A stretch of 35,070 bases of DNA, taken from positions 1 through 35,070 of IMG/VR virus record IMGVR_UViG_3300043425_000986; one strand, given 5' to 3'. Source of the stretch: a virus. The position numbers were made by a program, and so were the translations under genes. Of this stretch, positions 1 through 35,070 are shown piece by piece (position 1 is the stretch's first letter; every line of letters begins with the position of its first letter). The notes below the pieces were generated by a model. The model was given only the letters and a program-made list of their open reading frames with translations. It was not told the DNA's origin and did no database searches.

Positions 1-110
1 TCGCGGATTGCCTGTACAAGAACGGCAACGTCTATCTCCAGCTCTGCAATGCTGCCGGGGTCTCCTGCACTGAAAGCCGGGCACAGCGTAATCCGAAGGT
101 GTCCGCGTGA
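1..110 (+). CDS. C-terminal part of first early gene (same gene as 34514-34963)
   Basis: This is the last 36 codons of the gene complete at 34514-34963, interrupted only by the arbitrary break of the circle. It ends in TGA at 108-110, which overlaps the GTG of the next small ORF. It differs from the full copy by Asn instead of His near the C terminus because of the single mismatch in the terminal repeat. Function unknown; see the full-length entry. Confidence 0.85.
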   Translation, partial: ADCLYKNGNVYLQLCNAAGVSCTESRAQRNPKVSA

Positions 111-217
111 GCTCGCGCTATCGTTTCCGCCTCCATCACATCCTGTTCCCGGCGCTGTTTCTGACGCCCGGGGAACGGGCGGCCCTTCGTCGGATTCTTC
201 GATCCCGAGACTGTCGA
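1..217. repeat. Terminal direct repeat closing the circular genome
   Basis: Bases 1-217 match 34854-35070 at every position except base 90 (A) against 34943 (C). Both ends cut through the same early gene, so this is assembly overlap of a circular or circularly permuted molecule, as expected for a headful-packaging P22-like phage, rather than two gene copies. The mismatch changes Asn to His in the overlapping gene and may be a population variant or an assembly error. Confidence 0.93.
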
Positions 218-17838: not shown

Positions 17839-18386
17839 TGGACGACATCAAGCGGGACATCTTCGGAGATCTACAGCCCGGCGGCCCTGCGCCGGATGAC
17901 GTCAAGCGCGCGCTATTTGGCGACCTGATGGAGATGAGAGCGGCAGCTCCAAAGCCGATGGCTAGGCCTGCGCCCTCGCCCATGACGATCGATGACAGGC
18001 GCGCGATGTACGAGCGCCAGTTCGCGCAGGAGCCATTTCACAGACAGGCCCTGATCTCCGTCGGCGCCGGGGTCGAGGATGCGGGCCGACTGCTCGGTCT
18101 GATCGACGACGCGGGCGACACCGAGGCCTCCGCATCGGTAAATCAGCCGCTTCGAATCGCCGGGGCGGCGGTTCCCCTGATCGTTGGCGCAAGGGGCGGC
18201 GGCGGAACGCTTGCGATGGCGATGGGCCCGGCTAGAACCGCGCGAATGCTCAAGGGCGCGGCCAACACGGCAAGGTGGGCCGGCAATCGAACCGTCGACG
18301 CGGCGAAGAGCCAATTCGGCCAGACGGTGCTCGCAGGCGGTGTGCTGGGCGGCGCATACGCGACGCTCAAGGACCTTGTGAAGTAA
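17838..18386 (+). CDS. Putative third internal virion protein with N-terminal repeat
   Basis: 182 residues from ATG 17838, which shares its A with the preceding stop. Two copies of one motif open the protein: DDIKRDIFGDL (2-12) and DDVKRALFGDL (20-30). The middle is Pro/Ala-rich. The C-terminal 80 residues hold hydrophobic, Gly/Ala-rich segments (RIAGAAVPLIVGARGGGGTLAMAM and VLAGGVLGGAYATL) that could insert in a membrane. The repeats look like capsid- or portal-docking peptides, which is speculative. Its stop overlaps the next ATG. Confidence 0.65.
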   Translation: MDDIKRDIFGDLQPGGPAPDDVKRALFGDLMEMRAAAPKPMARPAPSPMTIDDRRAMYERQFAQEPFHRQALISVGAGVEDAGRLLGLIDDAGDTEASASVNQPLRIAGAAVPLIVGARGGGGTLAMAMGPARTARMLKGAANTARWAGNRTVDAAKSQFGQTVLAGGVLGGAYATLKDLVK

Positions 18387-19489
18387 TGGCTGCCCTCACC
18401 CCCTCCCCGCGCTTTCAGGCGTTCACCGCAGGCGGCGACCCGCTCGTGGGCGGCCGCCTGTACACGTACGTCTCCGGGACCTCGACGCCGGCCGCGACGT
18501 ACAACAGCAGCGCGGCAACGACAGCGAACACAAACCCCGTGATCCTCGATGCGCGCGGAGAGGCGGACGTGTGGCTTGCGGAGGGCGTGAGCTACAAGTT
18601 CGTCCTGAAGGACGCCAGCGACGCGACGATCTGGACGCGTGAGCCCGTGTCCGTCTCGGCCTCGGGAGGTTCCGGCGGCGGAACGACGCTTCCGTCGCAG
18701 GCAGGAAACGCCGGGAAATTCCTTACGACAGACGGGACGGCGTTGTCCTGGGGGACCCCTTCGATCCCAGACGCGATCAACACGGCGTCGTTCGTTCTCG
18801 AGGAAGAATTCCTCTACGTCACCGGGACGACCCCGGGGACGTACTCGAACCCCGTCCCCTCGACCCGTCTGTATCTCAACGGCAGCACGCTTGCCCCCAC
18901 ACTTTCTGTGACGAGTGGGGAGCCCGACCACCCCGGTGTTAGCCGCTGGAACATCGGAAACGGTGTGATGAGCGCGCTGTATTTCGGCCCAGCGTCGAAT
19001 TCGGCCGGTGTGCGCGTTGATCAGATCGATCGATTCGTGGCGATCGTGAAGTTCGGAAAGACTACCGGAACGAACTTCTTGAAGGCTGGATTCGGTGCCC
19101 AGATGGACACCTGGAATCACTTTGAGGAGCTCACCTTCGGCGGGAACGGCATCGGGTTCAGCGCAAAGGCTTATAACGCCGCAGGAAACCCCGTCATCGA
19201 GAACTGGAAGGTCTTCGCCGAGAAAGGCGGAGTCCAGTCACTCGTCTCGTCGTCCGTTCCGATTGCGGCCGCTGATACCTGGTACCGGCTGGAGGCCGTT
19301 CGCGCGAGCTCGGGCGACTGGTCAATGTACATCAACGGCTCGCTCGTCGCGACGATCACGTCCGCACAAGCCCCGACCGCATCGACGGGCCTCAACGCGG
19401 GCCTCACGTCCGGGCGCGGATGGCCCGGTGCGTACATCGATGTCGACTATCTAGGCGTCGCGCTCAAGGGCGCGGCGGGCAGGTACTAA
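18386..19489 (+). CDS. Tail fibre/spike protein 1: head-binding domain plus LamG-like tip
   Basis: 367 residues from ATG 18386 (TAATG overlap); the longer upstream frame overlaps the previous gene and is rejected. Residues 1-90 (LTPSPRFQAF, GGRLYTYVSGTSTPAATY, NTNPVILDARGEADVWL, YKFVLKDASDATIW) are a head-binding domain found at the N termini of podoviral tail proteins. A Gly/Ser linker follows, then from about 130 a concanavalin-like beta domain (FVAIVKFGKTTGTNFLKAGFG, WYRLEAVRASSGDWSMYINGS). The tip would bind the host surface. Its N terminus is paralogous to the next gene. Confidence 0.8.
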   Translation: MAALTPSPRFQAFTAGGDPLVGGRLYTYVSGTSTPAATYNSSAATTANTNPVILDARGEADVWLAEGVSYKFVLKDASDATIWTREPVSVSASGGSGGGTTLPSQAGNAGKFLTTDGTALSWGTPSIPDAINTASFVLEEEFLYVTGTTPGTYSNPVPSTRLYLNGSTLAPTLSVTSGEPDHPGVSRWNIGNGVMSALYFGPASNSAGVRVDQIDRFVAIVKFGKTTGTNFLKAGFGAQMDTWNHFEELTFGGNGIGFSAKAYNAAGNPVIENWKVFAEKGGVQSLVSSSVPIAAADTWYRLEAVRASSGDWSMYINGSLVATITSAQAPTASTGLNAGLTSGRGWPGAYIDVDYLGVALKGAAGRY

Positions 19490-19492
19490 GCG

Positions 19493-20587
19493 ATGGCATC
19501 ACTCGCTCCGCAGCCCAAGTTCTCGGCGTCGAAACCCGACGGATCCGCTCTCGTCGGCGGAAAGCTCTTCACGTACGCGACGGGTACGACGACCCCGCTG
19601 GCGTCGTACATCGACGCGTCTGGCGCGACGCCCAACACGAACCCCGTGATTCTGGATTCGCGCGGAGAATGCGACCTGTGGCTCGCGCCGACGCAGGCCT
19701 ACAGGCTCGTCTTGAAGGACGCGAACGACGTCCAGCTCTGGAGCATCGACGACATCCGCGGCTTCGATCCATCGCAGCTTCCGAGCACCACAGTCAACGG
19801 GACGCTTACCGTCACCGGATCGTCGAACTTCGGATCCGCTAGCTTCACGGGCTCGGTGTCCGTGTCCGGCTCGATGTCAGTCGCGGGCTCGAGCGTCCTG
19901 ACATCCGCCACGGGACTGGCGAACGGGACGCCACTGGACAGCATCGCCGGGACGCTATCGATCTCGAAGGGCGGCACAGGCAGCACATCGGCAAGCCAGG
20001 CGCTCACCAACCTCCTCCCGTCTCAGTCCGGGCAGGCTGGGAAGGTCCTCACGACGAACGGAACTGTTGCGTCATGGGGTACGGCGGGAGGCGCGCCAAG
20101 CGGGTCCGGACAGGTCCTTCAACGCGCGGTCGCGCAGAGCGTCGCGAACGTTGCGGTCACATCGACGATCTCATCGGCGGCGGCCCTTCCATCAAGCGCG
20201 TTCGGCCAAGAGATCCACTCCGTCGCGTTCACGCCCAAGGCGTCGAGCAGCCTGATCGAGTTCGATATCTCGTGGGCGGTCGCCTCGACGACGAGCGCCG
20301 GGACGGGTGCCGTTGCCGGAACGTCAGGGACTCTCGTCCTCGCAATTTTCGACGGCGGGACCACCGCGATCGCGGCAACGGCAATCCTTGCGGGATCGAG
20401 CGCCGGATATGTCAGGGCCCGGGTCTACGCGCCGGCCGGGAGTACGACGGCGCGGACCTACAGCGTTCGGGCGATGACGCTCGCCGATCTGACGGCGACG
20501 ACGGTCATCAACTACTCGATTTCTGGCGGCTCGCTGTTCGGCGGGACCCAGAAGAACAGCGTGACGATCACGGAGACCAGCGCGTGA
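19493..20587 (+). CDS. Tail fibre protein 2 with the same head-binding domain
   Basis: 364 residues, starting four bases after the first tail gene. Residues 1-85 repeat the same domain (LAPQPKFSASKPDGSALVGGKLFTY, NTNPVILDSRGECDLWL, YRLVLKDANDVQLWSID). Residues 95-200 are a Ser/Thr/Gly-rich repeat region with the phage-fibre motif ISKGGTGSTSASQALTNLLPSQ. The C-terminal 150 residues are beta-rich with no LamG signature. Two tail proteins with one attachment domain suggest either a branched fibre or two receptor-binding proteins competing for the same site. Confidence 0.78.
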   Translation: MASLAPQPKFSASKPDGSALVGGKLFTYATGTTTPLASYIDASGATPNTNPVILDSRGECDLWLAPTQAYRLVLKDANDVQLWSIDDIRGFDPSQLPSTTVNGTLTVTGSSNFGSASFTGSVSVSGSMSVAGSSVLTSATGLANGTPLDSIAGTLSISKGGTGSTSASQALTNLLPSQSGQAGKVLTTNGTVASWGTAGGAPSGSGQVLQRAVAQSVANVAVTSTISSAAALPSSAFGQEIHSVAFTPKASSSLIEFDISWAVASTTSAGTGAVAGTSGTLVLAIFDGGTTAIAATAILAGSSAGYVRARVYAPAGSTTARTYSVRAMTLADLTATTVINYSISGGSLFGGTQKNSVTITETSA

Positions 20588-22762: not shown

Positions 22763-22780
22763 ATGCCAGGAGGGCAGCCC

Positions 22781-23995
22781 GTGAAATCTAGGAATGGTCT
22801 CGTCGTGTCACTGCACAAGAAGGTCGGAAAGAGCGTCGAGTTGTTCTCGGGATGCGGGGGTCTCGCGCTCGGGCTGTCGTTCGCCGGTTTCGAGCACGAG
22901 CTCCTGGTCGAGCGAGACAAGCATGCCTGCGCGACGCTCTCGCACAACAAGACGAACGGTGATCGGCTCACCGAGAACTGGACGGTCCAGTCGAACGACG
23001 TCCGAGCCGTCGACTGGAAGTCGTTCGCCGGTTCCGTGACCCTCGTGGCGGGCGGCCCTCCCTGCCAGCCGTTCTCTATCGGCGGCAAGGCAGCGGGCAA
23101 TCAGGACGAGCGTGACATGTGGCCCGAGTCCGTCCGCTCGGTGCGCGAGATCGGTCCAACCGCCTTTATCTTCGAGAACGTTCGCGGCCTTCTTCGGCCG
23201 AGGTTCTCGAGCTACGTCGACTGGATTCTGGCTTACCTCTCTAACCCTTCGGTCGTGATGCAGCCGGGCGAAACGCACGCAGACCACATGCAGCGCCTGC
23301 TATCCGTGGATGGGCCGTCCGAGTACGCGGTCCAGCTCGTCGACGTCAACGCAGCGGATTACGGCGCCCCGCAGAAGCGGAAGCGTGTCCTCTTCATCGG
23401 CTTCCGTCGCGATCAGTTCCCTGAAGCGCCGAGGTTTCCTCGTCCCACGCACTCGAACGAGCGGCTGATGTGGGACAAATGGGTGAGCGGTGAGTACTGG
23501 ACGCGCCACGGGCTGCAGCGTCCCGGCGACGATAAGATTCCCGAGATCGAGATGAGGATCGCTTCTCGTCTTCGAGAAAGCCTGATTGAACCCGATGAAC
23601 TGCCATGGCAGACCTGCCGAGACGCGTTCAAGGGCCTCGGCGAGCCTGGCACGCGCCCTGACCTGTCGAACCACTCGCCGCAGCCCGGGGCGCGCTCGTA
23701 CGCCGGACACACCGGAAGCCCGATCGATGAGCCCGCGAAGGCACTCAAGGCGGGCGTCCATGGCGTTCCGGGGGGCGAGAACATGCTGGCGCTCGAAGGC
23801 GGATCCGTTCGCTACTTCTCGATCCGAGAAGCCGCGAGACTGCAGGGCATCCCTGACGGCTATGAGTTCCCGGGGAGCTGGACGGAGTCGATGCGTCAGA
23901 TCGGCAATGCCGTTCCGGTGCACCTGTCGCGCTTCGCGGGCCAGTGGATCGCCGATCAGCTTCGTGGAGTATCGACGCGACGTCGGGCAGCCTGA
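22781..23995 (+). CDS. C5 cytosine DNA methyltransferase
   Basis: 404 residues. Motif I VELFSGCGGLALGLSFAGFE binds SAM. Motif IV GGPPCQPFS has the catalytic Cys. Motif VI FIFENVRG carries the catalytic Glu. Motif VIII APQKRKRVLFIGFR and motif X QIGNAVPVHLS complete the fold, with the target-recognition domain between VIII and IX. GTG 22781 is chosen as start because AGGAGGG lies six bases before it; ATG 22763 is in frame but has no SD. It methylates cytosines at an unknown site and should protect against the endonuclease at 24405-25217. The gene ends inside the 3' end of the convergent vsr. Confidence 0.95.
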   Translation: MKSRNGLVVSLHKKVGKSVELFSGCGGLALGLSFAGFEHELLVERDKHACATLSHNKTNGDRLTENWTVQSNDVRAVDWKSFAGSVTLVAGGPPCQPFSIGGKAAGNQDERDMWPESVRSVREIGPTAFIFENVRGLLRPRFSSYVDWILAYLSNPSVVMQPGETHADHMQRLLSVDGPSEYAVQLVDVNAADYGAPQKRKRVLFIGFRRDQFPEAPRFPRPTHSNERLMWDKWVSGEYWTRHGLQRPGDDKIPEIEMRIASRLRESLIEPDELPWQTCRDAFKGLGEPGTRPDLSNHSPQPGARSYAGHTGSPIDEPAKALKAGVHGVPGGENMLALEGGSVRYFSIREAARLQGIPDGYEFPGSWTESMRQIGNAVPVHLSRFAGQWIADQLRGVSTRRRAA

Positions 23996-24423
23996 AGAGG
24001 CCCGAGGAACGCCTTGATGGCTTCCTCGACCTTCGGTTCGTCGCGGAGTTCGCACTCCCAGACCGTCAGGACGCGCCAGCCGTCAGCGATTAGTCGTTCC
24101 TCGACCGATCTGTCGCGCCGAACGTTCGATGCGAGCTTGTCGATCCAAAATGTCTGATCCGGTCGCGGGCGCTTGTATGTTCCGCAGTCGTGTCCGTGCC
24201 AGAAGCAGCCGTGCAGGAAGATCACGGACCGTCTGCCCGCGAACACGAGGTCAGGTCGACCAGGAAGCTTCTTTCCGTGCAGTCTGTATCGATACCCCAT
24301 CGCCCAGACGAGGCGCCGAAGCTTGAGCTCCGGGGCGGTGTCCTTGCCCCGGATGCGAGACATTCGCTCGCTTCGCTCCTCGACCGTGAGCGTGTCTCGT
24401 CTGGTCAGCTCAGCTTCGTCCAA
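23956..24423 (-). CDS. vsr: Very short patch repair endonuclease (Vsr)
   Basis: 155 residues if started at TTG 24423, the usual Vsr length (E. coli 156); ATG 24363 would remove the conserved VEERSERMSRIRGKDTAPE start. LPGRPDLVFAGRRSVIFLHGCFWHGHDC contains the catalytic Asp and zinc-linked Cys/His cluster; FWIDKLASNVRRD and WRVLTVWECELR follow. Vsr nicks T:G mismatches formed by deamination of 5-methylcytosine, so it belongs with the C5 enzyme. It overlaps the restriction gene by 19 bases on the same strand and the methyltransferase gene tail-to-tail by 40 bases, unlike the same-strand dcm-vsr overlap of E. coli. Confidence 0.92.
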   Translation of the reverse strand: MDEAELTRRDTLTVEERSERMSRIRGKDTAPELKLRRLVWAMGYRYRLHGKKLPGRPDLVFAGRRSVIFLHGCFWHGHDCGTYKRPRPDQTFWIDKLASNVRRDRSVEERLIADGWRVLTVWECELRDEPKVEEAIKAFLGPLQAARRRVDTPRS

Positions 24424-25217
24424 ACCGTGTGTGGCCAAGGGGTGGGGGTCGCTGGATAAAGTATGACCCGGCCGTGAAACAAAGTGACCCGCCAAGCCCT
24501 GGGAGGCAAGGCGGGCAGCATCACCTGGTCGATCAACTGACGCATCGTCAAGTTCGGCGCAGGTATCGAAACCGGACCCTGTCGCTGGTCGATGTGACCA
24601 GTCCGGTAGTGCGCGAACTTCCCGTTGGGTAGCAGGTCGGTCCCGAACCTGAAGTCGTATGGCAGCTTCGACTTCACGAACAGGAGCAATTCCAAAAGGT
24701 TCGTGAATGCCAACGGAACGACCCACGGCAACGGCACGTCGATATCGACTGGGTACTGAACATCAAACGCGGCGGGCGCCTGCCCTTCACGGTTCTGTCC
24801 CGGGTCGTTCGATCCGAACCCGAGGTTCTGCCATGCGAGTGAGCTGCCAGCTCCGTGAACGCCAGCGTAGTGCCTTAAAAGCGCGCTCTCGACGTTTACG
24901 ACGGTGAAGACCATCACCCGGACGGCCTTGAACGAAACGTCACGAGGTCTGAGCCCGACTCGATGTGAGATGTTGTTGAAGTGGCGGCCTAGCCGGTTCC
25001 TGAATCCAGCGTCCGCGTCCGTCTTCCCGACGTACACAGCCTTTCCCTTGTGAAAGAGCGTGTAGACGCCTTGAACGTCCTCCGGCAGCGACTGAACGCG
25101 TTGAGGATGCAGTAGCGCTCGGCTGACCTTGTCGAACTCGAGCGGCAACCGCTCTGTGATCACACGGTTCAAGTCGAGCTCGAACTCCCGGTACCCGGTC
25201 GGTTTCTTCGTAGCCAT
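24405..25217 (-). CDS. GIY-YIG restriction endonuclease, Eco29kI-like
   Basis: 270 residues. GVYTLFHKGKAVYVGKTD (about 50-67) is the GIY-YIG core. FRNRLGRHFNNI gives the catalytic Arg and the following His; VESALLRHY the metal-binding Glu; and WQNLGFGSNDPGQNREG corresponds in layout to the WN-GFG-N-PG-R segment of Eco29kI. About 130 further C-terminal residues have no match I know and may set specificity. Eco29kI cuts CCGCGG and pairs with a C5 methyltransferase, as here, but the target of this enzyme cannot be read from sequence. A promoter TTGCGC (25251-25246), 16 bp, TAGACT (25229-25224) puts transcription start at about the ATG, with no SD: probably leaderless. Confidence 0.85.
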   Translation of the reverse strand: MATKKPTGYREFELDLNRVITERLPLEFDKVSRALLHPQRVQSLPEDVQGVYTLFHKGKAVYVGKTDADAGFRNRLGRHFNNISHRVGLRPRDVSFKAVRVMVFTVVNVESALLRHYAGVHGAGSSLAWQNLGFGSNDPGQNREGQAPAAFDVQYPVDIDVPLPWVVPLAFTNLLELLLFVKSKLPYDFRFGTDLLPNGKFAHYRTGHIDQRQGPVSIPAPNLTMRQLIDQVMLPALPPRAWRVTLFHGRVILYPATPTPWPHTVWTKLS

Positions 25218-25337: not shown

Positions 25338-25643
25338 ATGTCGAACCCGAACATCCCACCCGGCTGGTCCGCCCTTTCCCGCCGCCTCATCGCAAACATC
25401 GAGGCTCTAGCCGCCGGCCGCCCGTATCGCATCGAGTGGATGGGCGAGAAGTACGGCTCTTTGCGCTGTGACGCATCCGTTCCCGACGACGTGAGGCCTC
25501 TCGCTGACGAGATCATCTCGTTGGCTGAAGAGGCAAGCCTGAGGATCTGCTCGGTGTGCGGCGCAGCCGGGAAGATGCGCGGCGACGAGGACGGCTGGAT
25601 GTACGTCGCCTGTGACGAGCACACGCGGCCGGCGGATCGCTAG
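25338..25643 (+). CDS. Conserved hypothetical protein with zinc-ribbon-like C terminus
   Basis: 101 residues, the only rightward gene in this part; SD AAGGAA before ATG 25338. PPGWSALSRRLIANIEAL, then EKYGSLRCDASVPDDVRPLADEIISLAEEASLRICSVCGAAGKMR and WMYVACDEH, follow a pattern seen in short proteins of many phages and bacteria (W-x-L, KYG-LR, C-x2-CG, C-x2-H). The CxxC and CxEH pairs could bind zinc. Function is not known. Its stop overlaps the convergent stop of the next gene by four bases (CTAG). Confidence 0.75.
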   Translation: MSNPNIPPGWSALSRRLIANIEALAAGRPYRIEWMGEKYGSLRCDASVPDDVRPLADEIISLAEEASLRICSVCGAAGKMRGDEDGWMYVACDEHTRPADR

Positions 25644-26146
25644 CCGAGCGACGAGAAGACCGAGCCGATCGCCCTCCGGTTGATCTGTACCCGGCAGGCC
25701 GCGACGATTTCGGCCAGGCGTTCGCCGTCCACTAGATCGACAATGGACTCGTCAATCCCGTTGATGTCTGCGTAAGCGACGGCCACGAGCTGGTCCGGTA
25801 TCGAGCGAACGCACAGGCGCAGCCGGGCTTTGTCCTGATCGTCAGGTTCGATGTAGCTGTAAAGCCTTTGGGACAGAAGACAGATCAACAGCTTGGCGAG
25901 GTGTCCGTCCTCTCGTGCCTTCGCTACCCAGCGGACGAACAGCAGGATCTCGCGCGCGACGCGCTCGTTGTCGTCGTCCCAATTTTCCTGGCCGTACCCG
26001 GCGGCTACGATCTCGATCCTCGACTCGATGGCCGACAGCGCGCGACGGTCCGACTCGATCATCGCGCCGAGATCCTCGGCGTGTGCGAGTAGGTCCGCCC
26101 AGGTCCTGCAGCGCTGGAGGATCGTCTCTATCGACTGTTCAGACAT
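25640..26146 (-). CDS. Tandem paralogue A (third of three), unknown family
   Basis: 168 residues from ATG 26146, which overlaps the stop of paralogue B by eight bases (ATGTCTGA); an upstream in-frame start at 26197 is less likely. Helical. TWADLLAHAEDLGAMIESDRRALSAIESRIE (about 11-41) aligns with TPTDLLMHETSLVALLSSDRTGVLQAIKEVR of copy C. The C terminus VAACRVQINRRAIGSVFSSL aligns with the ends of B and C. No catalytic motif, signal or membrane segment is seen. Transcribed C-B-A from a common start, probably as a multi-subunit set. Confidence 0.75.
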   Translation of the reverse strand: MSEQSIETILQRCRTWADLLAHAEDLGAMIESDRRALSAIESRIEIVAAGYGQENWDDDNERVAREILLFVRWVAKAREDGHLAKLLICLLSQRLYSYIEPDDQDKARLRLCVRSIPDQLVAVAYADINGIDESIVDLVDGERLAEIVAACRVQINRRAIGSVFSSLG

Positions 26147-26609
26147 TGCCGAGCACCGACGAGATGACTTGGTCGATCTCGCGGCGGGCGAGAACACATT
26201 GGCAGTACGCCGTCGATCGGGCGTGAAGGTCCGGGGCGGGAAGCCGGTTGATCGCGTTGATGCATCGCTTGGGCATCAGCTCGAGCGCGAGTACGTGAAG
26301 CGCCTCCAGGTACTTCCCCGATCGCTTGCTTTCGCCGAACGAAGTGACGAGAAGCATCGTGAGCAGCTCGTCGTCGTCGCCCGTGTAGATCTCGGCGATC
26401 CAGCGCAAGCCCGAGATCACGCGGCGATGTTCCTCGACGCCCTGCATGTCCTTGCGTCCGACTGTCTCACGAGGACCCGGGATGCCGTCGTGTATCGCAC
26501 CGACGGCATCGAGAAACGCCTCGGGGTCCTGCTCGATCAGTCGCGCGATCTTTTCGGCGGAGAGCTTAACGCTCGACCAGGAATTGACGTGAAAGATGAA
26601 AGAAGTCAT
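26139..26609 (-). CDS. Tandem paralogue B (second of three), unknown family
   Basis: 156 residues from ATG 26609, overlapping copy C by 44 bases; CGGAG lies about 14 bases upstream. SWSSVKLSAEKIARLIEQDPEAFLDAVGAI (10-39), then RVISGLRWIAEIYTGDDDELLTMLLV, align with the same regions of A and C. The C-terminal segment LMPKRCINAINRLPAPDLHARSTAYCQCVLARREIDQVISSVL aligns clearly with MDPVRSINLMRDRDPDGLAASIDQCQSLISKALFRSVF of C. A long overlap between paralogues indicates old, stable duplication rather than a recent repeat. Function unknown. Confidence 0.75.
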   Translation of the reverse strand: MTSFIFHVNSWSSVKLSAEKIARLIEQDPEAFLDAVGAIHDGIPGPRETVGRKDMQGVEEHRRVISGLRWIAEIYTGDDDELLTMLLVTSFGESKRSGKYLEALHVLALELMPKRCINAINRLPAPDLHARSTAYCQCVLARREIDQVISSVLGNV

Positions 26610-27024
26610 CTGGGAACACGCTCCGGAAGAGGGCCTTCGAGATCAGGGATTGGCATTGATCGATTGATGCTGCGAGACCGTCCGGGTCTCTGTCTCGCAT
26701 CAAGTTGATCGACCTGACCGGGTCCATCGCGATGCCGATCTCGTGAACCACGAGGCGTGGCGCGATGTTGCTCGAGTTTCCGGTGAGGTTGAGGAACGCG
26801 AACCACGCGTCATCCCCGAGCTCGTACGCATTGATCAGCGCCTCGATGAGCGACAGGATCGCGCGCCCTTCCCACTGCTCGCTCGGGTCGTTGCGTACCT
26901 CCTTGATCGCCTGGAGAACCCCCGTTCGATCACTGGAGAGCAGCGCGACGAGGCTCGTCTCGTGCATGAGAAGGTCGGTCGGCGTTCGGATCCTTCTGAT
27001 CAGCTCGAACGTGTCGTCCGTCAT
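26566..27024 (-). CDS. Tandem paralogue C (first of three), unknown family
   Basis: 152 residues from ATG 27024, chosen because GGAGG sits five bases upstream; an in-frame GTG at 27039 is disfavoured. Blocks shared with A and B: TPTDLLMHETSLVALLSSDRTGVLQAIKEVR (about 13-43), ILSLIEALINAYELGDDAWFAFLNL and MDPVRSINLMRDRDPDGLAASIDQCQSLISKALFRSVF. Mostly alpha-helical, slightly acidic and with no recognised domain. A GATAG dyad (27054-27067) lies in its promoter. First gene of a three-gene unit that ends against the rightward gene at 25338. Confidence 0.75.
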   Translation of the reverse strand: MTDDTFELIRRIRTPTDLLMHETSLVALLSSDRTGVLQAIKEVRNDPSEQWEGRAILSLIEALINAYELGDDAWFAFLNLTGNSSNIAPRLVVHEIGIAMDPVRSINLMRDRDPDGLAASIDQCQSLISKALFRSVFPDDFFHLSRQFLVER

Positions 27025-27053
27025 CGCGTCCTCCGTCACATCGGAAGCGCAGG

Positions 27054-27067
27054 CTATCGTCGGATAG
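27054..27067. promoter_or_regulatory. GATAG palindrome upstream of the paralogue triplet
   Basis: CTATC (27054-27058), GTCG, GATAG (27063-27067): a perfect dyad of the GATAG half of the phage-wide GATAGTC motif, 30 bases upstream of the first paralogue. Suggests that the triplet is under the same control as phage promoters. Confidence 0.5.
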
Positions 27068-27123
27068 TGTGGGACACCAGGCCTTTACATGCTAGTTGGC
27101 ATAGATGCAACGCTGCCCGATGC

Positions 27124-27168
27124 GTTACTGGATGGCATGAAAACGCCCGGCAAATGCCGGGCAGTAAC
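27124..27168 (-). terminator. Terminator after the HNH gene
   Basis: On the minus strand GCCCGGCA and TGCCGGGC (27162-27145) form a perfect stem with a two-base loop, followed by G and TTTT. An outer pair, GTTACTG (27124-27130) and CAGTAAC (27162-27168), could extend the structure. It separates the HNH gene from the paralogue promoter. Confidence 0.8.
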
Positions 27169-27191
27169 GGGGGGATGAAGGCCCCGAGTGA

Positions 27192-27803
27192 TCAGGCGAC
27201 TTTCGCGTCGTACGTGTACATATCCGGAAAGTGCGCCTCGATCCACGTCCAATAGACCTCGAAACTCGGGAAAAGCCGGCTTCCCTTCGCCTGGTTCACG
27301 TAGTCCGGGATCACGTTCAGATTCCCCGGCGTGTGCAGCCCACACGCGACCTGCATTCTCTCGCCGCCGTCAGTCCTCTCGTTCGCGACAATCGGGACGA
27401 AGTGATCGACGACCCAGGGCTCGCCTGTCAGACGTGTGAACCTGCGCGCCGTGACGTACGCGACCGCCAGCTCGTGCCTCTGCTCTTTCGTCATCGAAAC
27501 AGTCGCCAGCTTCTTGCGCAGCCTCCTCATCCCCTGGCTTGCCGCCACGATCGCGCTGTAGTGCTCTGGATGGTTCTCGCGCCACCGACGCACTGCCTCA
27601 CGGTTTCGCTCGGGATACAGCGCCCGGATCTGTCTCTCGGCCTCGGCTCGGCAGGGCTTGCATCGAGACATCAGCTTTCCTTTCGTCGCCGTGAAATTCG
27701 ACTTCGAGACAAACGTCCCGCACCCCGTGCAGTACTTGACGCGTGCGACTACAGCGTTTGCGACGAGGGCGGACCGGATCAGTTCTTTTGTTAGCGTTGA
27801 CAT
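27192..27803 (-). CDS. HNH-type endonuclease with N-terminal zinc finger
   Basis: 203 residues, SD GGAGA before ATG 27803. YCTGCGTFVSKSNF and SRCKPCRAEAERQIRAL (about 24-60) form a CxxC...CxxC zinc ribbon. A basic helical middle follows. The HNH-like core is WVVDHFVPIVANERTDGGERMQVACGLHTPGNLNVIPDYVNQAKGSRLFPSF: DH in the first strand, CGLHTPGNL, then N-V-I-P and N-x2-K. This organisation is common in phage and restriction-associated HNH proteins. It may be a homing-type or packaging-related nuclease. It lies in the accessory region, so a role in inter-phage competition or restriction is possible. Confidence 0.82.
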   Translation of the reverse strand: MSTLTKELIRSALVANAVVARVKYCTGCGTFVSKSNFTATKGKLMSRCKPCRAEAERQIRALYPERNREAVRRWRENHPEHYSAIVAASQGMRRLRKKLATVSMTKEQRHELAVAYVTARRFTRLTGEPWVVDHFVPIVANERTDGGERMQVACGLHTPGNLNVIPDYVNQAKGSRLFPSFEVYWTWIEAHFPDMYTYDAKVA

Positions 27804-27837: not shown

Positions 27838-28494
27838 TCAAAGGCCGTAGAAGAATTCGGAGCGCAGCCTCTCTGGGGTGGTCCTGTAGATCTCCTCGAG
27901 ACCGTGCTTGACGGTTAGCAGTCGCTCCAGCGGCTCGGCCTGGACGTGCGGGTCGCGGCCGAACATCGCGTCGATGCAGCGGCGCGTGTACAGCAGGGCC
28001 TCGTGCGGGGTTCGGCCCCAGCCGATCAGGACCTCCTGGTCTCCGGCGGCGAAGTCCCAGAAAACGAAGAACGAAGCGTCTCGAACGGCGACCGGCGGCG
28101 GGATGAGCTTGTGTATGTCGCGGTCCTCGGCTTTCTTGTGGACCGGGCGCGATCTGTAGGCCTCGAGGATCCGGGCGCACCAGCGGAGGTCCTCGGCGAC
28201 CTCTGCGGCGTCGCGGTCGACGCCGAATGTGAATCGGGCGCGCTTTTGCTCGTTTCCGTCGAGGTCGGCCTCGCCGCTGGCTTTGATCCGCCCCTCAAGC
28301 TCGATGTCTTTCCAGGCCGTCGCCGTCGGGTTGCCGTGGCCGGATTCGAGCGTCGAGTCGTCGAGCTCGACGAGGATGTACGTGTCGCCGCGCGCGTGTG
28401 CGTCCGCTTGCCAGCGCTCGACGTCGGCGGTCGTCACGGCCGACAGGTCGTCGATTGCGGCGGATCTGCTGGATCGGATGGATGGAATGTGCAT
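27838..28494 (-). CDS. Unknown 218-residue accessory protein
   Basis: ATG 28494 follows a short leader carrying GATAGTC on the minus strand and a second GATAG. The protein is charged: residues 28-45 (WQADAHARGDTYILVELD), a possible beta segment (ASFFVFWDFAAGDQEVLIGWGRTPHEALLYTRRCIDAMFG, about 140-180) and a helical C terminus. No recognised motif. Two features recur in the next upstream gene (28561-29169): a short DGDGEVVL/GDQEVLIGW-like strand and PERAAEAL/DAAEVAEDL-like helices, hinting at distant kinship, unproven. Function unknown. Confidence 0.65.
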   Translation of the reverse strand: MHIPSIRSSRSAAIDDLSAVTTADVERWQADAHARGDTYILVELDDSTLESGHGNPTATAWKDIELEGRIKASGEADLDGNEQKRARFTFGVDRDAAEVAEDLRWCARILEAYRSRPVHKKAEDRDIHKLIPPPVAVRDASFFVFWDFAAGDQEVLIGWGRTPHEALLYTRRCIDAMFGRDPHVQAEPLERLLTVKHGLEEIYRTTPERLRSEFFYGL

Positions 28495-28560: not shown

Positions 28561-29169
28561 TTAGTTATAGCGTCCTTCGGCGAATTTGAAAGGGCAGTTC
28601 AGCTTTTTGCTTGTGTTTGCCTTCAGGTCGTAGACCTCTATCCATCCTTCGTCCACTTCGTCCATCCGCCCGTTGTTCGCCGCATCGATGAACATATTTT
28701 TCACGATCTCGATCCGCGCGTCGTTGATAGCCGCCTCTTCAGTGCCCGCCTCAGACAAAACAACCTCCCCGTCACCGTCGCTCCAGAGCACACGGAACGC
28801 GGGCTCTCCTTCAAATCCAGACGGCTGGAGATTTCTTGTCTCGTAGATCGAGTCCTCGATCGTCGCCTTCGCCGAGCCGATCCTCAGCGCCTCCGCCGCA
28901 CGTTCAGGATCAGCATCGACGCCGATCCATGCGCGCCCGACGCTCAGGTCGACCGCGATAGTTTTTGTGTCCCACTCTTTTTCCGGATGGTACATATCGA
29001 ACGCGCGAACTTCTTCGAGTCCGTCGTCCGACAGGAAAATCTCCATCCCGTCGGTTTCATTGTCTTCGTCGTGGTCTCGTCCCATTCCGTAGCCCGAGAC
29101 ACGGATTGCATCCTGCAGCTCTTCGATATAGTCTGCAGTCACGTTGAAGCATGTAGTGCGTTTATTCAT
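28561..29169 (-). CDS. Very acidic protein, possible DNA mimic
   Basis: 202 residues from ATG 29169, chosen because GGAG lies six bases upstream; the frame is open further but lacks SD. By my count about 45 Asp/Glu against about 22 Lys/Arg, with clusters such as GRDHDEDNETDGMEIFLSDDG and NGRMDEVDEGWIEVYD. Alternating strand/helix pattern. No family recognised. Highly acidic small phage proteins next to int are sometimes anti-restriction DNA mimics (Ocr, ArdA types), but no sequence similarity to those is visible, so this is a suggestion only. It precedes a terminator and follows a repeat-rich promoter. Confidence 0.65.
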   Translation of the reverse strand: MNKRTTCFNVTADYIEELQDAIRVSGYGMGRDHDEDNETDGMEIFLSDDGLEEVRAFDMYHPEKEWDTKTIAVDLSVGRAWIGVDADPERAAEALRIGSAKATIEDSIYETRNLQPSGFEGEPAFRVLWSDGDGEVVLSEAGTEEAAINDARIEIVKNMFIDAANNGRMDEVDEGWIEVYDLKANTSKKLNCPFKFAEGRYN

Positions 29170-29414
29170 TTGAAACTCCGTCATATTCAGGTTTGGTTTT
29201 TTAGCGCCTTGTTTGTTTAGCGCATGTGTCAATAATGCCCTGGATTTTTGCGCTTGTGTTGTACTCACGCCACGCGACGCAAGCTTCAATATCTCCGAGT
29301 TAATGCTCTGCCAAACCTCTAATTAAGAAGTAGAGACGCAAGGCAAATGACAGAGGGACGATTCGTCTTTCTGCGAGACAAGAACACGAGGTCATTCAGT
29401 AGCAACAGGCTGAC

Positions 29415-29451
29415 GAACGGTCGGTTCTGACCGACGAACGGTCGGTTCCGG
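29415..29451. repeat. 37-bp intergenic element, copy 1
   Basis: Contains CGAACGGTCGGTTC twice; 32 of 37 bases match 33613-33649. Includes a small dyad, ACCGAC and GTCGGT, around GAACG. Confidence 0.7.
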
Positions 29452-29503
29452 AGGCCGCCAGATCGGTCCGGGCCGCTTGTGTATATATGTATTACGCGCG
29501 CGG

Positions 29504-29523
29504 GCGTACGCGCGCGCGTACGC
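29504..29523. repeat. Perfect 20-bp CG-alternating palindrome after int
   Basis: GCGTACGCGCGCGCGTACGC is its own reverse complement and lies 6 bases past the integrase stop, within about 35 bases of alternating purine-pyrimidine sequence. It can form a hairpin, cruciform or Z-DNA. There is no T run, so it is not a typical terminator. Confidence 0.75.
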
Positions 29524-29529
29524 GTGGGG

Positions 29530-30879
29530 CTACGCGTCGGCCGGATATCGCTCGAGCACTTGGGCGAGATGCGACTGCCAGAGGAGCAGCGCGTCGGTCT
29601 TCTCACGCCAGAATTCGTGTCGGTTGTAATGTCGATTGATTAGCCCGCCGAGCTCGTGCGACAGCAGGCGCGCGCGCGTCTCTTTCTCAACGCCTAGCTT
29701 GGTGAGCTGCGTCTCGACGGTTCGACGAATATCCCCGAGCCGAAACGCCAGGCGGATCGCCTTGGCCTCGACCAGTTTCTTCGAGATGTCCGTCACGGTA
29801 TGGGACAGCGTCTCGGGCGCGATACTGTCGACGCCGGAAGATGTGCTGTGCACTAGCTCCCCGCCGTCAAGCATCCCGAGAAGTTCGCAATAGATCGCGG
29901 TGAGGGATTCCGAGAGGGGCAGCTCGTGAGGCACAGGGGCCGGCCTGCGTCCCTTGCCATCCCAGAGCGTCAACACGCCGCCCGCCACGTCTACGTCCCG
30001 AACGGTCGCGCGCGTGAGCTGGGCCGGGCGTTGAGCGCCGAGGAGGAGATGAGCGCGAAGCGTGAGGCGAATCGGCGCGGATTTGATCGTGTCGATCGCG
30101 CGCTGGTAGTGCGCCAGCTCTTCATCCGACAGGGACCGCGTCGACGTTGAACAATGATCAGCGGGGACCTTAATTCCCGATATCGGGTTGATCTCGACGC
30201 CGAAAGCCTCGAGCTCGGACGGAGCCTCCGGGTCATTCGCAGCACTCACCGCGAACGCATACGCGGAGTGAAGCATGCTTCTCAGATGCTTGGCTTCGCT
30301 TCGGTGTCCGAGGCCGAGAACTTTCGTGATCGATGATTTCAGTTGCGACACCGTCACGCTTCGCGCCGGCGAATCGACCCAGGCATACCCGAGATCGGGA
30401 TCGAGAATTCGGCGTCGGAAGGTGTTCTCGACGTCTTTGGGGCGACGCTTGCCGGCGGCTTCAAGCTTCTTGACGTAGAGGTCGAGCAGCTTCCTGAGTG
30501 AGACGTCCTTCTCGCCGCTTTTCTTGATCGCGCCGGATGCGGCGGCGGGTGTTGCCGAGGCCTTGGGATCGATGCCGCGCCTGAGCTGGTCGCGGATCTC
30601 GTCGGCCTTCGCGCGTGCCTCCGCCAGGGTGATCCCGTCCGCGTCGTCGGATGATCGGTACGGGCCGAGCGTCGCCAGCTCGCGCCTTCCGTTGCGCCCG
30701 ACGAACCGGAAATAGAACCCCTTCGCGCCGGACCGCCCGACTCTCAGGACGAGGCTTCCCGATCCCCGGGGCGATGGATCCGTGAGCCAGTAGTCCGCGG
30801 CCTGAGGCTTCGCGCCACGGATCACTTTGTCCGTGAGCAGCGCTCCCCGTCGTACTCCATCGTTGCCGTTCGTTGCCAT
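29530..30879 (-). CDS. int: Tyrosine integrase, P4-like
   Basis: 449 residues. The N terminus LLTDKVIRGAKPQAADYWLTDPSPRGSGSLVLRVGRSGAKGFYFRF is the arm-binding (DUF4102-type) domain; residues about 125-225 the core-binding domain; about 235-449 the catalytic domain, with Arg in LLGAQRPAQLTRA, HELPLS, DIRRTVET, LLSHELGG and Tyr in INRHYNRHEFW. All catalytic positions appear present. It recombines attP (31014-31064) with a host tRNA-Thr gene. The start codon region contains GTTGCC repeats that may be its own arm sites, giving autoregulation. SD is weak at ATG 30879. Confidence 0.95.
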   Translation of the reverse strand: MATNGNDGVRRGALLTDKVIRGAKPQAADYWLTDPSPRGSGSLVLRVGRSGAKGFYFRFVGRNGRRELATLGPYRSSDDADGITLAEARAKADEIRDQLRRGIDPKASATPAAASGAIKKSGEKDVSLRKLLDLYVKKLEAAGKRRPKDVENTFRRRILDPDLGYAWVDSPARSVTVSQLKSSITKVLGLGHRSEAKHLRSMLHSAYAFAVSAANDPEAPSELEAFGVEINPISGIKVPADHCSTSTRSLSDEELAHYQRAIDTIKSAPIRLTLRAHLLLGAQRPAQLTRATVRDVDVAGGVLTLWDGKGRRPAPVPHELPLSESLTAIYCELLGMLDGGELVHSTSSGVDSIAPETLSHTVTDISKKLVEAKAIRLAFRLGDIRRTVETQLTKLGVEKETRARLLSHELGGLINRHYNRHEFWREKTDALLLWQSHLAQVLERYPADA

Positions 30880-34513: not shown

Positions 34514-34963
34514 ATGGACCACCCTCCACCCTCCTCCCTCGTCGATCCGGACCTCGCTGGATTCGCTCGACTCGCCGCCGGGCTCATCGATAACGCGGTG
34601 CTCGATATCAGGGCTGCCAGACGCGACCAAGGCATTTCCGACGCTCATTCCAGTGGCCGCGAAACGTCCGACCGCGCGCTACGAGCGGATCCCGAGCTTG
34701 GGCTTCGCCTCGCCCGCAAAGAACGGGCCACCCGCGCCCGCTATGCCCGGCAGTGGCTGACCGACACCGCGCCGCTCGGCCACGTCTCGCCGCTGTCGTT
34801 CGCCCTGTGTTGTTCTGCGCTTGCCCTTCCCGTCTCGGAAGTCGCGGATATCGTCGCGGATTGCCTGTACAAGAACGGCAACGTCTATCTCCAGCTCTGC
34901 AATGCTGCCGGGGTCTCCTGCACTGAAAGCCGGGCACAGCGTCATCCGAAGGTGTCCGCGTGA
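34514..34963 (+). CDS. First rightward early gene; phage protein of unknown function
   Basis: 149 residues from ATG 34514, which lies 25 bases downstream of the expected transcript start and has no good SD. The segment RATRARYARQWLTDTAPLGHVSPLSFALCCSALALPVSEVADIVADCL resembles phage early proteins in which a W-I-x-SD...FSF..x-C..LGL block is conserved; their function is not established, and a DNA-binding or antitermination role has not been shown. Tail contains C-rich YLQLCNAAGVSCTES. Its TGA overlaps the GTG of the small ORF that leads to rusA. The last part is repeated at 1-110 because the genome is circular. Confidence 0.75.
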   Translation: MDHPPPSSLVDPDLAGFARLAAGLIDNAVLDIRAARRDQGISDAHSSGRETSDRALRADPELGLRLARKERATRARYARQWLTDTAPLGHVSPLSFALCCSALALPVSEVADIVADCLYKNGNVYLQLCNAAGVSCTESRAQRHPKVSA

Positions 34964-35070
34964 GCTCGCGCTATCGTTTCCGCCTCCATCACATCCTGTT
35001 CCCGGCGCTGTTTCTGACGCCCGGGGAACGGGCGGCCCTTCGTCGGATTCTTCGATCCCGAGACTGTCGA
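34854..35070. repeat. Terminal direct repeat, second copy
   Basis: Matches 1-217 with the single difference at 34943. See the first entry. Confidence 0.93.
34960..35070 (+). CDS. Small ORF, 5' part (same as 107-253)
   Basis: First 37 codons of the 48-codon ORF described at 107-253, cut by the window end; continues at position 218 on the circle. Confidence 0.5.
   Translation, partial: MSSRYRFRLHHILFPALFLTPGERAALRRILRSRDCR

What the first reader, a model, noticed from the sequence alone, without database searches (positions are those of the whole stretch)
25640..27024. Three overlapping tandem paralogues of an unrecognised family in phage cargo
The three leftward genes look unrelated at first but share blocks in the same order: a DLL-H-x-L...D..A...AI start, a helix with GDD (weaker in A), and a C-terminal P-x-R-x-IN ... 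CQ ... SVF/SVL ending (clearest between B and C). They overlap by 44 and 8 bases, so they must be co-translated. A diverged triplet kept in tight overlap next to a restriction cassette and int suggests a multi-subunit or multi-specificity system (for example immunity, toxin-antitoxin or superinfection exclusion). I know of no described system with this layout.
Basis: partly seen in the sequence, partly recalled or inferred. Interest (0 to 1): 0.8.

Follow-up and report, generated by a model that had tools for sequence, protein, structure and literature searches.

The report
Three overlapping orphan phage paralogue genes
A temperate phage carries three overlapping, strongly diverged copies of one small all-helical protein that resembles nothing in the databases searched, so the family is real and new, but what it does is still a guess.

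Summary
Global alignment scores are 42-54, against at most 13.5 for 888 unrelated ORFs. T1-T3 is the firmest pair and T2 the most diverged.

The three have no detectable relatives in Pfam, PHROGs, NCBIfam, PADLOC, PDB sequences, 50,697 phages, 72,556 plasmids, or about 1,740 sampled Pseudomonadota genomes by profile; only close relatives could have been found in IMG/VR or GTDB. T1 is predicted confidently (pLDDT 82) as a compact all-helical domain with no significant structural neighbour in PDB or BFVD. The proteins are soluble, acidic or mildly acidic, and show no enzyme-like conserved residues.

A terminator-like hairpin separates the cassette from the upstream genes. Its codon usage is phage-typical, whereas the neighbouring Eco29kI/Vsr genes look recently acquired, so it is probably not part of that restriction cassette.

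My best reading is an accessory (moron-type) cassette of helical protein-binding factors, possibly a heteromer, acting at the phage-host or phage-phage interface. The family and its homology are well supported. The mechanism and the defence role are inference.

The parts
26566..27024 (-). T1 (152 aa, pI 4.8), first gene of the triplet; predicted all-alpha domain
   Evidence: ATG with strong SD GGAGG (-9.5 kcal/mol); coding score 0.284; AF2 pLDDT 82, pTM 0.74, about 9-10 helices
26139..26609 (-). T2 (156 aa, pI 6.0), second gene, overlaps T1 by 44 nt; most diverged member
   Evidence: coding score 0.253; own SD-like GGAG (-7.0); global alignment with T1 42 and T3 54.5 vs null maximum 13.5
25640..26146 (-). 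T3 (168 aa, pI 4.8), third gene, overlaps T2 by 8 nt (ATGTCTGA); no SD, so probably coupled to T2
   Evidence: coding score 0.236; SD energy -3.0 = background median; BLASTP with T1 E 2e-5
27144..27163 (-). terminator-like hairpin (8 pairs, 7 G-C, then TTTT) between the EndoVII-like gene and T1; suggests that the triplet is its own transcription unit
   Evidence: terminator-like sites as a class are not above chance, but this one has the joint-strongest stem and lies in the intergenic gap
27025..27143 (-). leader where a promoter for the triplet is expected; no sigma-70 consensus found
   Evidence: 0 promoter-like sites; sequence
25338..25643 (+). convergent small cysteine-containing ORF (101 aa) whose TAG shares the CTAG palindrome with the T3 stop; separates the triplet from the R-M genes
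24405..25217 (-). neighbour: Eco29kI-like GIY-YIG restriction endonuclease
   Evidence: Pfam PF09517 E 7e-7, just below the gathering score; codon usage atypical, 0.046
27192..27803 (-). neighbour: endonuclease VII-like gene upstream of the terminator
   Evidence: phrog_1035 E 2.4e-20

Best explanation
T1-T2-T3 is an independent accessory (moron-type) cassette of a temperate P22-like podophage. It arose by two old tandem duplications of one approximately 150-aa soluble all-helical protein (shown by sequence; about 0.95 for T1-T3, about 0.9 for T2). One mRNA carries the three genes (follows from the overlaps). T3, and perhaps T2, is translated by termination-reinitiation (inferred from the overlap and the missing SD). 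The products most likely act by binding other proteins and not by catalysis (inferred: all-helical fold, acidic or mildly acidic surface, no conserved catalytic-looking residues). Each copy has diverged to a different partner, or the three copies assemble with each other. The most likely purpose is at the phage-host or phage-phage interface, that is counter-defence or protection of the lysogen (inferred from location and rapid divergence only).
For: Paralogy. Coding. Order and overlaps. Terminator-bounded unit in the accessory region between the lysis/MTase genes and int. T1 fold confident and all-alpha; N-terminal half of the T3 model also helical. No known family. No TM segment. Overlaps of about -8 nt are in the class in which 30-45% of gene pairs encode heteromeric complexes, against about 6% for distant pairs (PMC10666635); T2-T3 falls in it. 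Prophage accessory ('moron') loci are often highly expressed in lysogens and confer traits such as phage resistance (PMC7067206 abstract).
Against: No relative was found, so neither conservation of the triplet, co-occurrence with defence genes, nor selection can be measured. No promoter consensus in the leader. The 44-nt T1-T2 overlap is outside the overlap class tied to complexes. The T3 model is poor, and no complex could be modelled. Nothing ties the cassette directly to defence or counter-defence.
Confidence: 0.35

Rival explanations
1. Heteromeric complex: T1, T2 and T3 are subunits of one obligate hetero-oligomer (for example 1:1:1), and the overlaps fix the stoichiometry.
For: Three copies kept together; T2-T3 -8 overlap with no SD for T3; overlap class enriched for complexes 4.5-8 fold (PMC10666635); paralogous subunits often assemble (general knowledge).
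Against: T1-T2 overlap is -44 with an SD for T2; compact genomes of phages overlap genes for other reasons; no interface could be tested.
Confidence: 0.25
2. Binding-type immunity or antitoxin-like proteins: each copy neutralises a different toxin or effector by direct binding, as in arrays of immunity genes.
For: Size, acidity, all-helical fold and diverged tandem copies are common in such proteins (general knowledge); no catalytic-looking residues conserved.
Against: No toxin-like partner gene is adjacent; no hit to any immunity or antitoxin family.
Confidence: 0.1
3. Neutral or weakly selected leftovers: an orphan accessory gene duplicated and drifting, with no dedicated system.
For: Adjacent 218-aa and 242-aa genes are orphans too, so this is an orphan-rich cargo zone; phages carry many such genes.
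Against: All three frames are intact, in phage-typical codon usage, with helix-core and collinear blocks kept despite deep divergence, which suggests long-standing purifying constraint.
Confidence: 0.2
4. Component of the neighbouring R-M cassette (for example control, immunity or an accessory defence module).
For: Same strand as the Eco29kI-like REase and Vsr, about 420 nt away.
Against: Separated by a convergent gene (25338-25643) that ends at the T3 stop; codon usage of REase/Vsr is atypical (0.046, -0.078) while T1-T3 are phage-typical; no PADLOC hit.
Confidence: 0.05

Closest known systems
Prophage accessory ('moron') loci, as in P22-like Salmonella phages (PMC7067206; SieA PMC10883804; BstA PMC8585504)
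   Same: P22-like podophage backbone, cassette between late/lysis genes and int, bounded by a terminator-like hairpin, no role in virion assembly evident
   Different: No sequence relation found; SieA is a membrane protein (general knowledge), these are soluble; three tandem paralogues instead of one gene; expression not known
Short-overlap operons encoding heteromeric complexes (PMC10666635)
   Same: T2-T3 overlap of 8 nt, downstream gene without SD
   Different: T1-T2 overlap of 44 nt is outside that class; complex not shown
HEAT/ARM-type alpha-solenoids (CpcE/CpcF, PH0542, importins)
   Same: T1 is a run of 9-10 short helices; the insignificant top Foldseek matches include many solenoids
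   Different: Best E 0.77, TM-score at most about 0.37; no internal sequence repeat. Not a member by any test

Membership tests
Any Pfam / NCBIfam / PHROG / PADLOC family | profile match above cut-off | tested here: not met
   T1-T3: 0 Pfam, 0 PADLOC; only chance-level PHROG (E 0.016, 47 aa) and NCBIfam (E 0.16) for T3
Known fold in PDB or BFVD | Foldseek E <= 0.001 or TM-score > 0.5 | tested here: not met
   T1 model: best E 0.77 (PDB), 1.3 (BFVD), TM at most about 0.37. T3 model too poor to count. T2 not modelled; no library of cellular predicted structures was available
One paralogous family T1/T2/T3 | mutual full-length similarity above a calibrated null | tested here: met
   hhalign clear only for T1-T3
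Membrane superinfection-exclusion proteins (Sie type) | transmembrane or signal segment | tested here: not met
   maximum 19-residue hydropathy 0.76-1.03
Toxin-antitoxin pair | two unrelated genes, toxin and antitoxin | tested here: not met
   the three genes are mutually related and match no TA family
Prophage accessory (moron) locus | own promoter and terminator, expressed in the lysogen | tested here: inconclusive
   terminator-like hairpin upstream, no promoter consensus; expression not testable
Heteromeric complex | physical assembly of T1, T2, T3 | not testable with these tools
   no complex prediction available; overlap evidence only
Type II R-M accessory protein | co-occurrence and co-transfer with R-M genes | tested here: inconclusive
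   different codon usage and an intervening convergent gene argue against it; no relatives to test co-occurrence

The most novel reading that the evidence does not exclude
T1-T2-T3 form a hetero-oligomer of three paralogous helical subunits that constitutes a new phage-encoded defence or counter-defence system, with a fold not yet represented in solved or viral predicted structures.
Probability: 0.12. Interest if true: 0.75.

Novelty: new variant of a known kind. Interest (0 to 1): 0.4.

Why it matters
Phage accessory regions are the main source of new defence and counter-defence proteins. A diverged triplet of one orphan family, kept intact and in tight overlap, is a sharper lead than a single orphan gene because it implies selection for several versions or subunits. 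It is testable in a laboratory strain with a three-gene construct. If it only proves to be a small helical accessory family it is an ordinary addition to the catalogue of phage cargo.

Tried and rejected
Antisense artefact: rejected by codon scores. One split or frameshifted gene: rejected because each frame carries a full-length copy of the family. DNA-level recent duplication: no direct repeats of 16 nt or more in 25600-27200, so the duplications are old. Relatives: viral-contig scans for T1, T2, T3, the A1 alignment, 218 aa, 242 aa and int all empty; genome contigs with T3 empty; tblastn in phages and plasmids empty or chance. Profile search of the 12 records of portal-related phages, of the ORFs of those and two named phages and the prophage loci, and of about 1,740 genomes, mostly Pseudomonadota, gave only chance hits. 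The best of these (E 1.3e-4, 4e-4, 5e-4) were checked and lie antisense to 2-oxoglutarate dehydrogenase, in a sensor histidine kinase, and antisense to a TRAP-transporter binding protein. Internal repeat inside each protein: not found. T3 structure: pLDDT 52.6, not used. Literature searches for tandem paralogues in prophage defence loci gave nothing specific.

Full report
What was checked. The window is a whole 35,070-base virus record. Its first 217 bases recur at 34854-35070 with a single mismatch, so it looks like a closed genome of about 34.85 kb. It carries a P22-like head module (portal phrog_156, coat phrog_283, terminase, head-closure protein), tail and DNA-ejection genes, endolysin and holin-like genes, a C5-methyltransferase / Vsr / Eco29kI-like restriction cassette, and a leftward arm with integrase, a DnaC-like loader and a replication protein. 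The portal's nearest named relative is an uncultured environmental phage (52% identity, Manatee Spring), and its relatives in bacterial genomes, mostly Pseudomonadota, are at 45% identity or less. The host is therefore unknown.

The genes. In transcription order T1 (27024-26566), T2 (26609-26139) and T3 (26146-25640) encode 152, 156 and 168 aa. T1 and T2 overlap by 44 nt, T2 and T3 by 8 nt (ATGTCTGA). Codon-usage scores are 0.24-0.28 per codon, equal to the best genes outside the training set (218-aa gene 0.285, holin-like 0.275), against 0.05 for the 271-aa antisense ORF. The restriction endonuclease (0.046) and Vsr (-0.078) genes score far lower, which suggests that the R-M genes came later and from elsewhere, and that the triplet is a long-standing resident.

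Homology. Pairwise BLASTP gives E 2e-5, 1e-4 and 0.002. Against full shuffles the local and global scores lie 6-7.8 sd above the mean, and 10-residue window shuffles reach the global scores in 0 of 2,000 trials. In a search of 2,901 ORFs from this and related phages, the other two members are the top or near-top matches of each query. Against 888 unrelated ORFs of 130-190 aa the best global score is 13.5, whereas the three pairs score 42, 49.5 and 54.5. The weak point is T2: single-sequence hhalign gives prob 23 for T1-T3 but only 3-4 for the pairs with T2, close to the top of a 60-protein null. T2's membership rests on the collinear full-length alignment and on transitivity: the E-x(1-3)-R-x-(I/L) helix, the C-terminal Cys and the SV(F/L) end align consistently in the pairwise and joint alignments.

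No relatives. Pfam, PHROGs, NCBIfam, PADLOC and PDB sequences give nothing. Whole-collection scans of IMG/VR with each protein and with the alignment, and of GTDB contigs with T3, give nothing; these scans need an exact conserved peptide, so they detect close relatives only. tblastn against 50,697 phages and 72,556 plasmids gives nothing below E 1. A profile of the three in portal-related phages and about 1,740 genomes, mostly Pseudomonadota, gives only chance hits, the best of which were read and rejected. The neighbouring 242-aa and 218-aa genes were also orphans in the searches made, so the whole stretch from 25.6 to 29.3 kb, except the EndoVII-like gene, is orphan cargo.

Structure. With the two paralogues as its only alignment, T1 is predicted at pLDDT 82 and pTM 0.74 as nine to ten helices. 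T3 is poorly predicted overall (52.6), with a moderately confident helical N-terminal half. T1 has no match at E <= 0.001 in PDB or BFVD; the PDB list includes many helical-repeat proteins, but at E 0.8-6 and TM below 0.4 this is only a hint. None of the three has a transmembrane-like stretch. T1 and T3 are acidic (charge about -8 and -9), T2 mildly so. The invariant set (M, D, L, A, E, R, I, A, C, V) does not look catalytic.

Expression. A strong hairpin with a T-run lies between the EndoVII-like gene and T1 (27163-27144), and another between the 242- and 218-aa genes (28553-28532). Terminator-like sites as a class are not above chance in this region, and no sigma-70 promoter consensus was found, so an independent promoter for the triplet is inferred, not shown. 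T1 has a strong SD, T2 a fair one, T3 none. Published work shows that overlaps of a few nucleotides drive termination-reinitiation and that such pairs encode heteromeric complexes in 30-45% of cases, against about 6% for distant pairs (PMC10666635). This applies to T2-T3, not to the 44-nt T1-T2 overlap.

Interpretation. The best-supported statement is structural: a new, small, soluble, all-helical protein family present as a diverged tandem triplet in a temperate phage's accessory region. For function, binding to other proteins is more likely than catalysis. A role at the phage-host or phage-phage interface is a common fate of such cargo, but nothing here shows it. A heteromeric complex is a serious alternative or addition. 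Membership in the adjacent R-M cassette, a toxin-antitoxin pair, or membrane exclusion is unlikely for the reasons in the membership table.

Verdict. The interpretation as a defence-type multi-subunit system is unproven. The finding is a new protein family of a common kind (orphan phage cargo) with an unusual tandem layout; interest is moderate.

Noticed in passing
window 1-217 and 34854-35070: 217-bp direct terminal repeat with one mismatch (position 90): the record is probably a closed genome of about 34,853 bp.
   Followed up: partly
window 18275-19489 and 19493-20587 (+): Two adjacent genes after the tail/DNA-ejection block share 51% identity over about 88 aa (BLASTP 6e-27) and then diverge: probably paired receptor-binding proteins with a common attachment domain.
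   Followed up: partly
window 22763-25217: Phage-borne C5-methyltransferase (+), Vsr (-) and Eco29kI-like GIY-YIG endonuclease (-), with REase and Vsr in atypical codon usage: a recently acquired R-M cassette.
   Followed up: partly
window 27838-28494 and 28561-29289 (-): Two further orphan genes (218 and 242 aa) next to the triplet, no relatives found in the searches made, with a terminator-like hairpin between them.
   Followed up: partly
window 29410-29450: Repeated GACGAACGGTCGGTTC motif between int and the 242-aa gene, followed at 29480-29530 by an alternating CG/TA-rich tract (GCGCGCGGGCGTACGCGCGCGCGTACGCG): possible integrase arm sites, operator or att region.
   Followed up: no
window 25338-25643 (+): Small cysteine-containing ORF convergent with T3; the two stop codons share the CTAG palindrome.
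   Followed up: no
window 27192-27803 (-): Endonuclease VII-like (HNH) gene (phrog_1035) lodged in the cargo region, not in the replication or packaging module.
   Followed up: no
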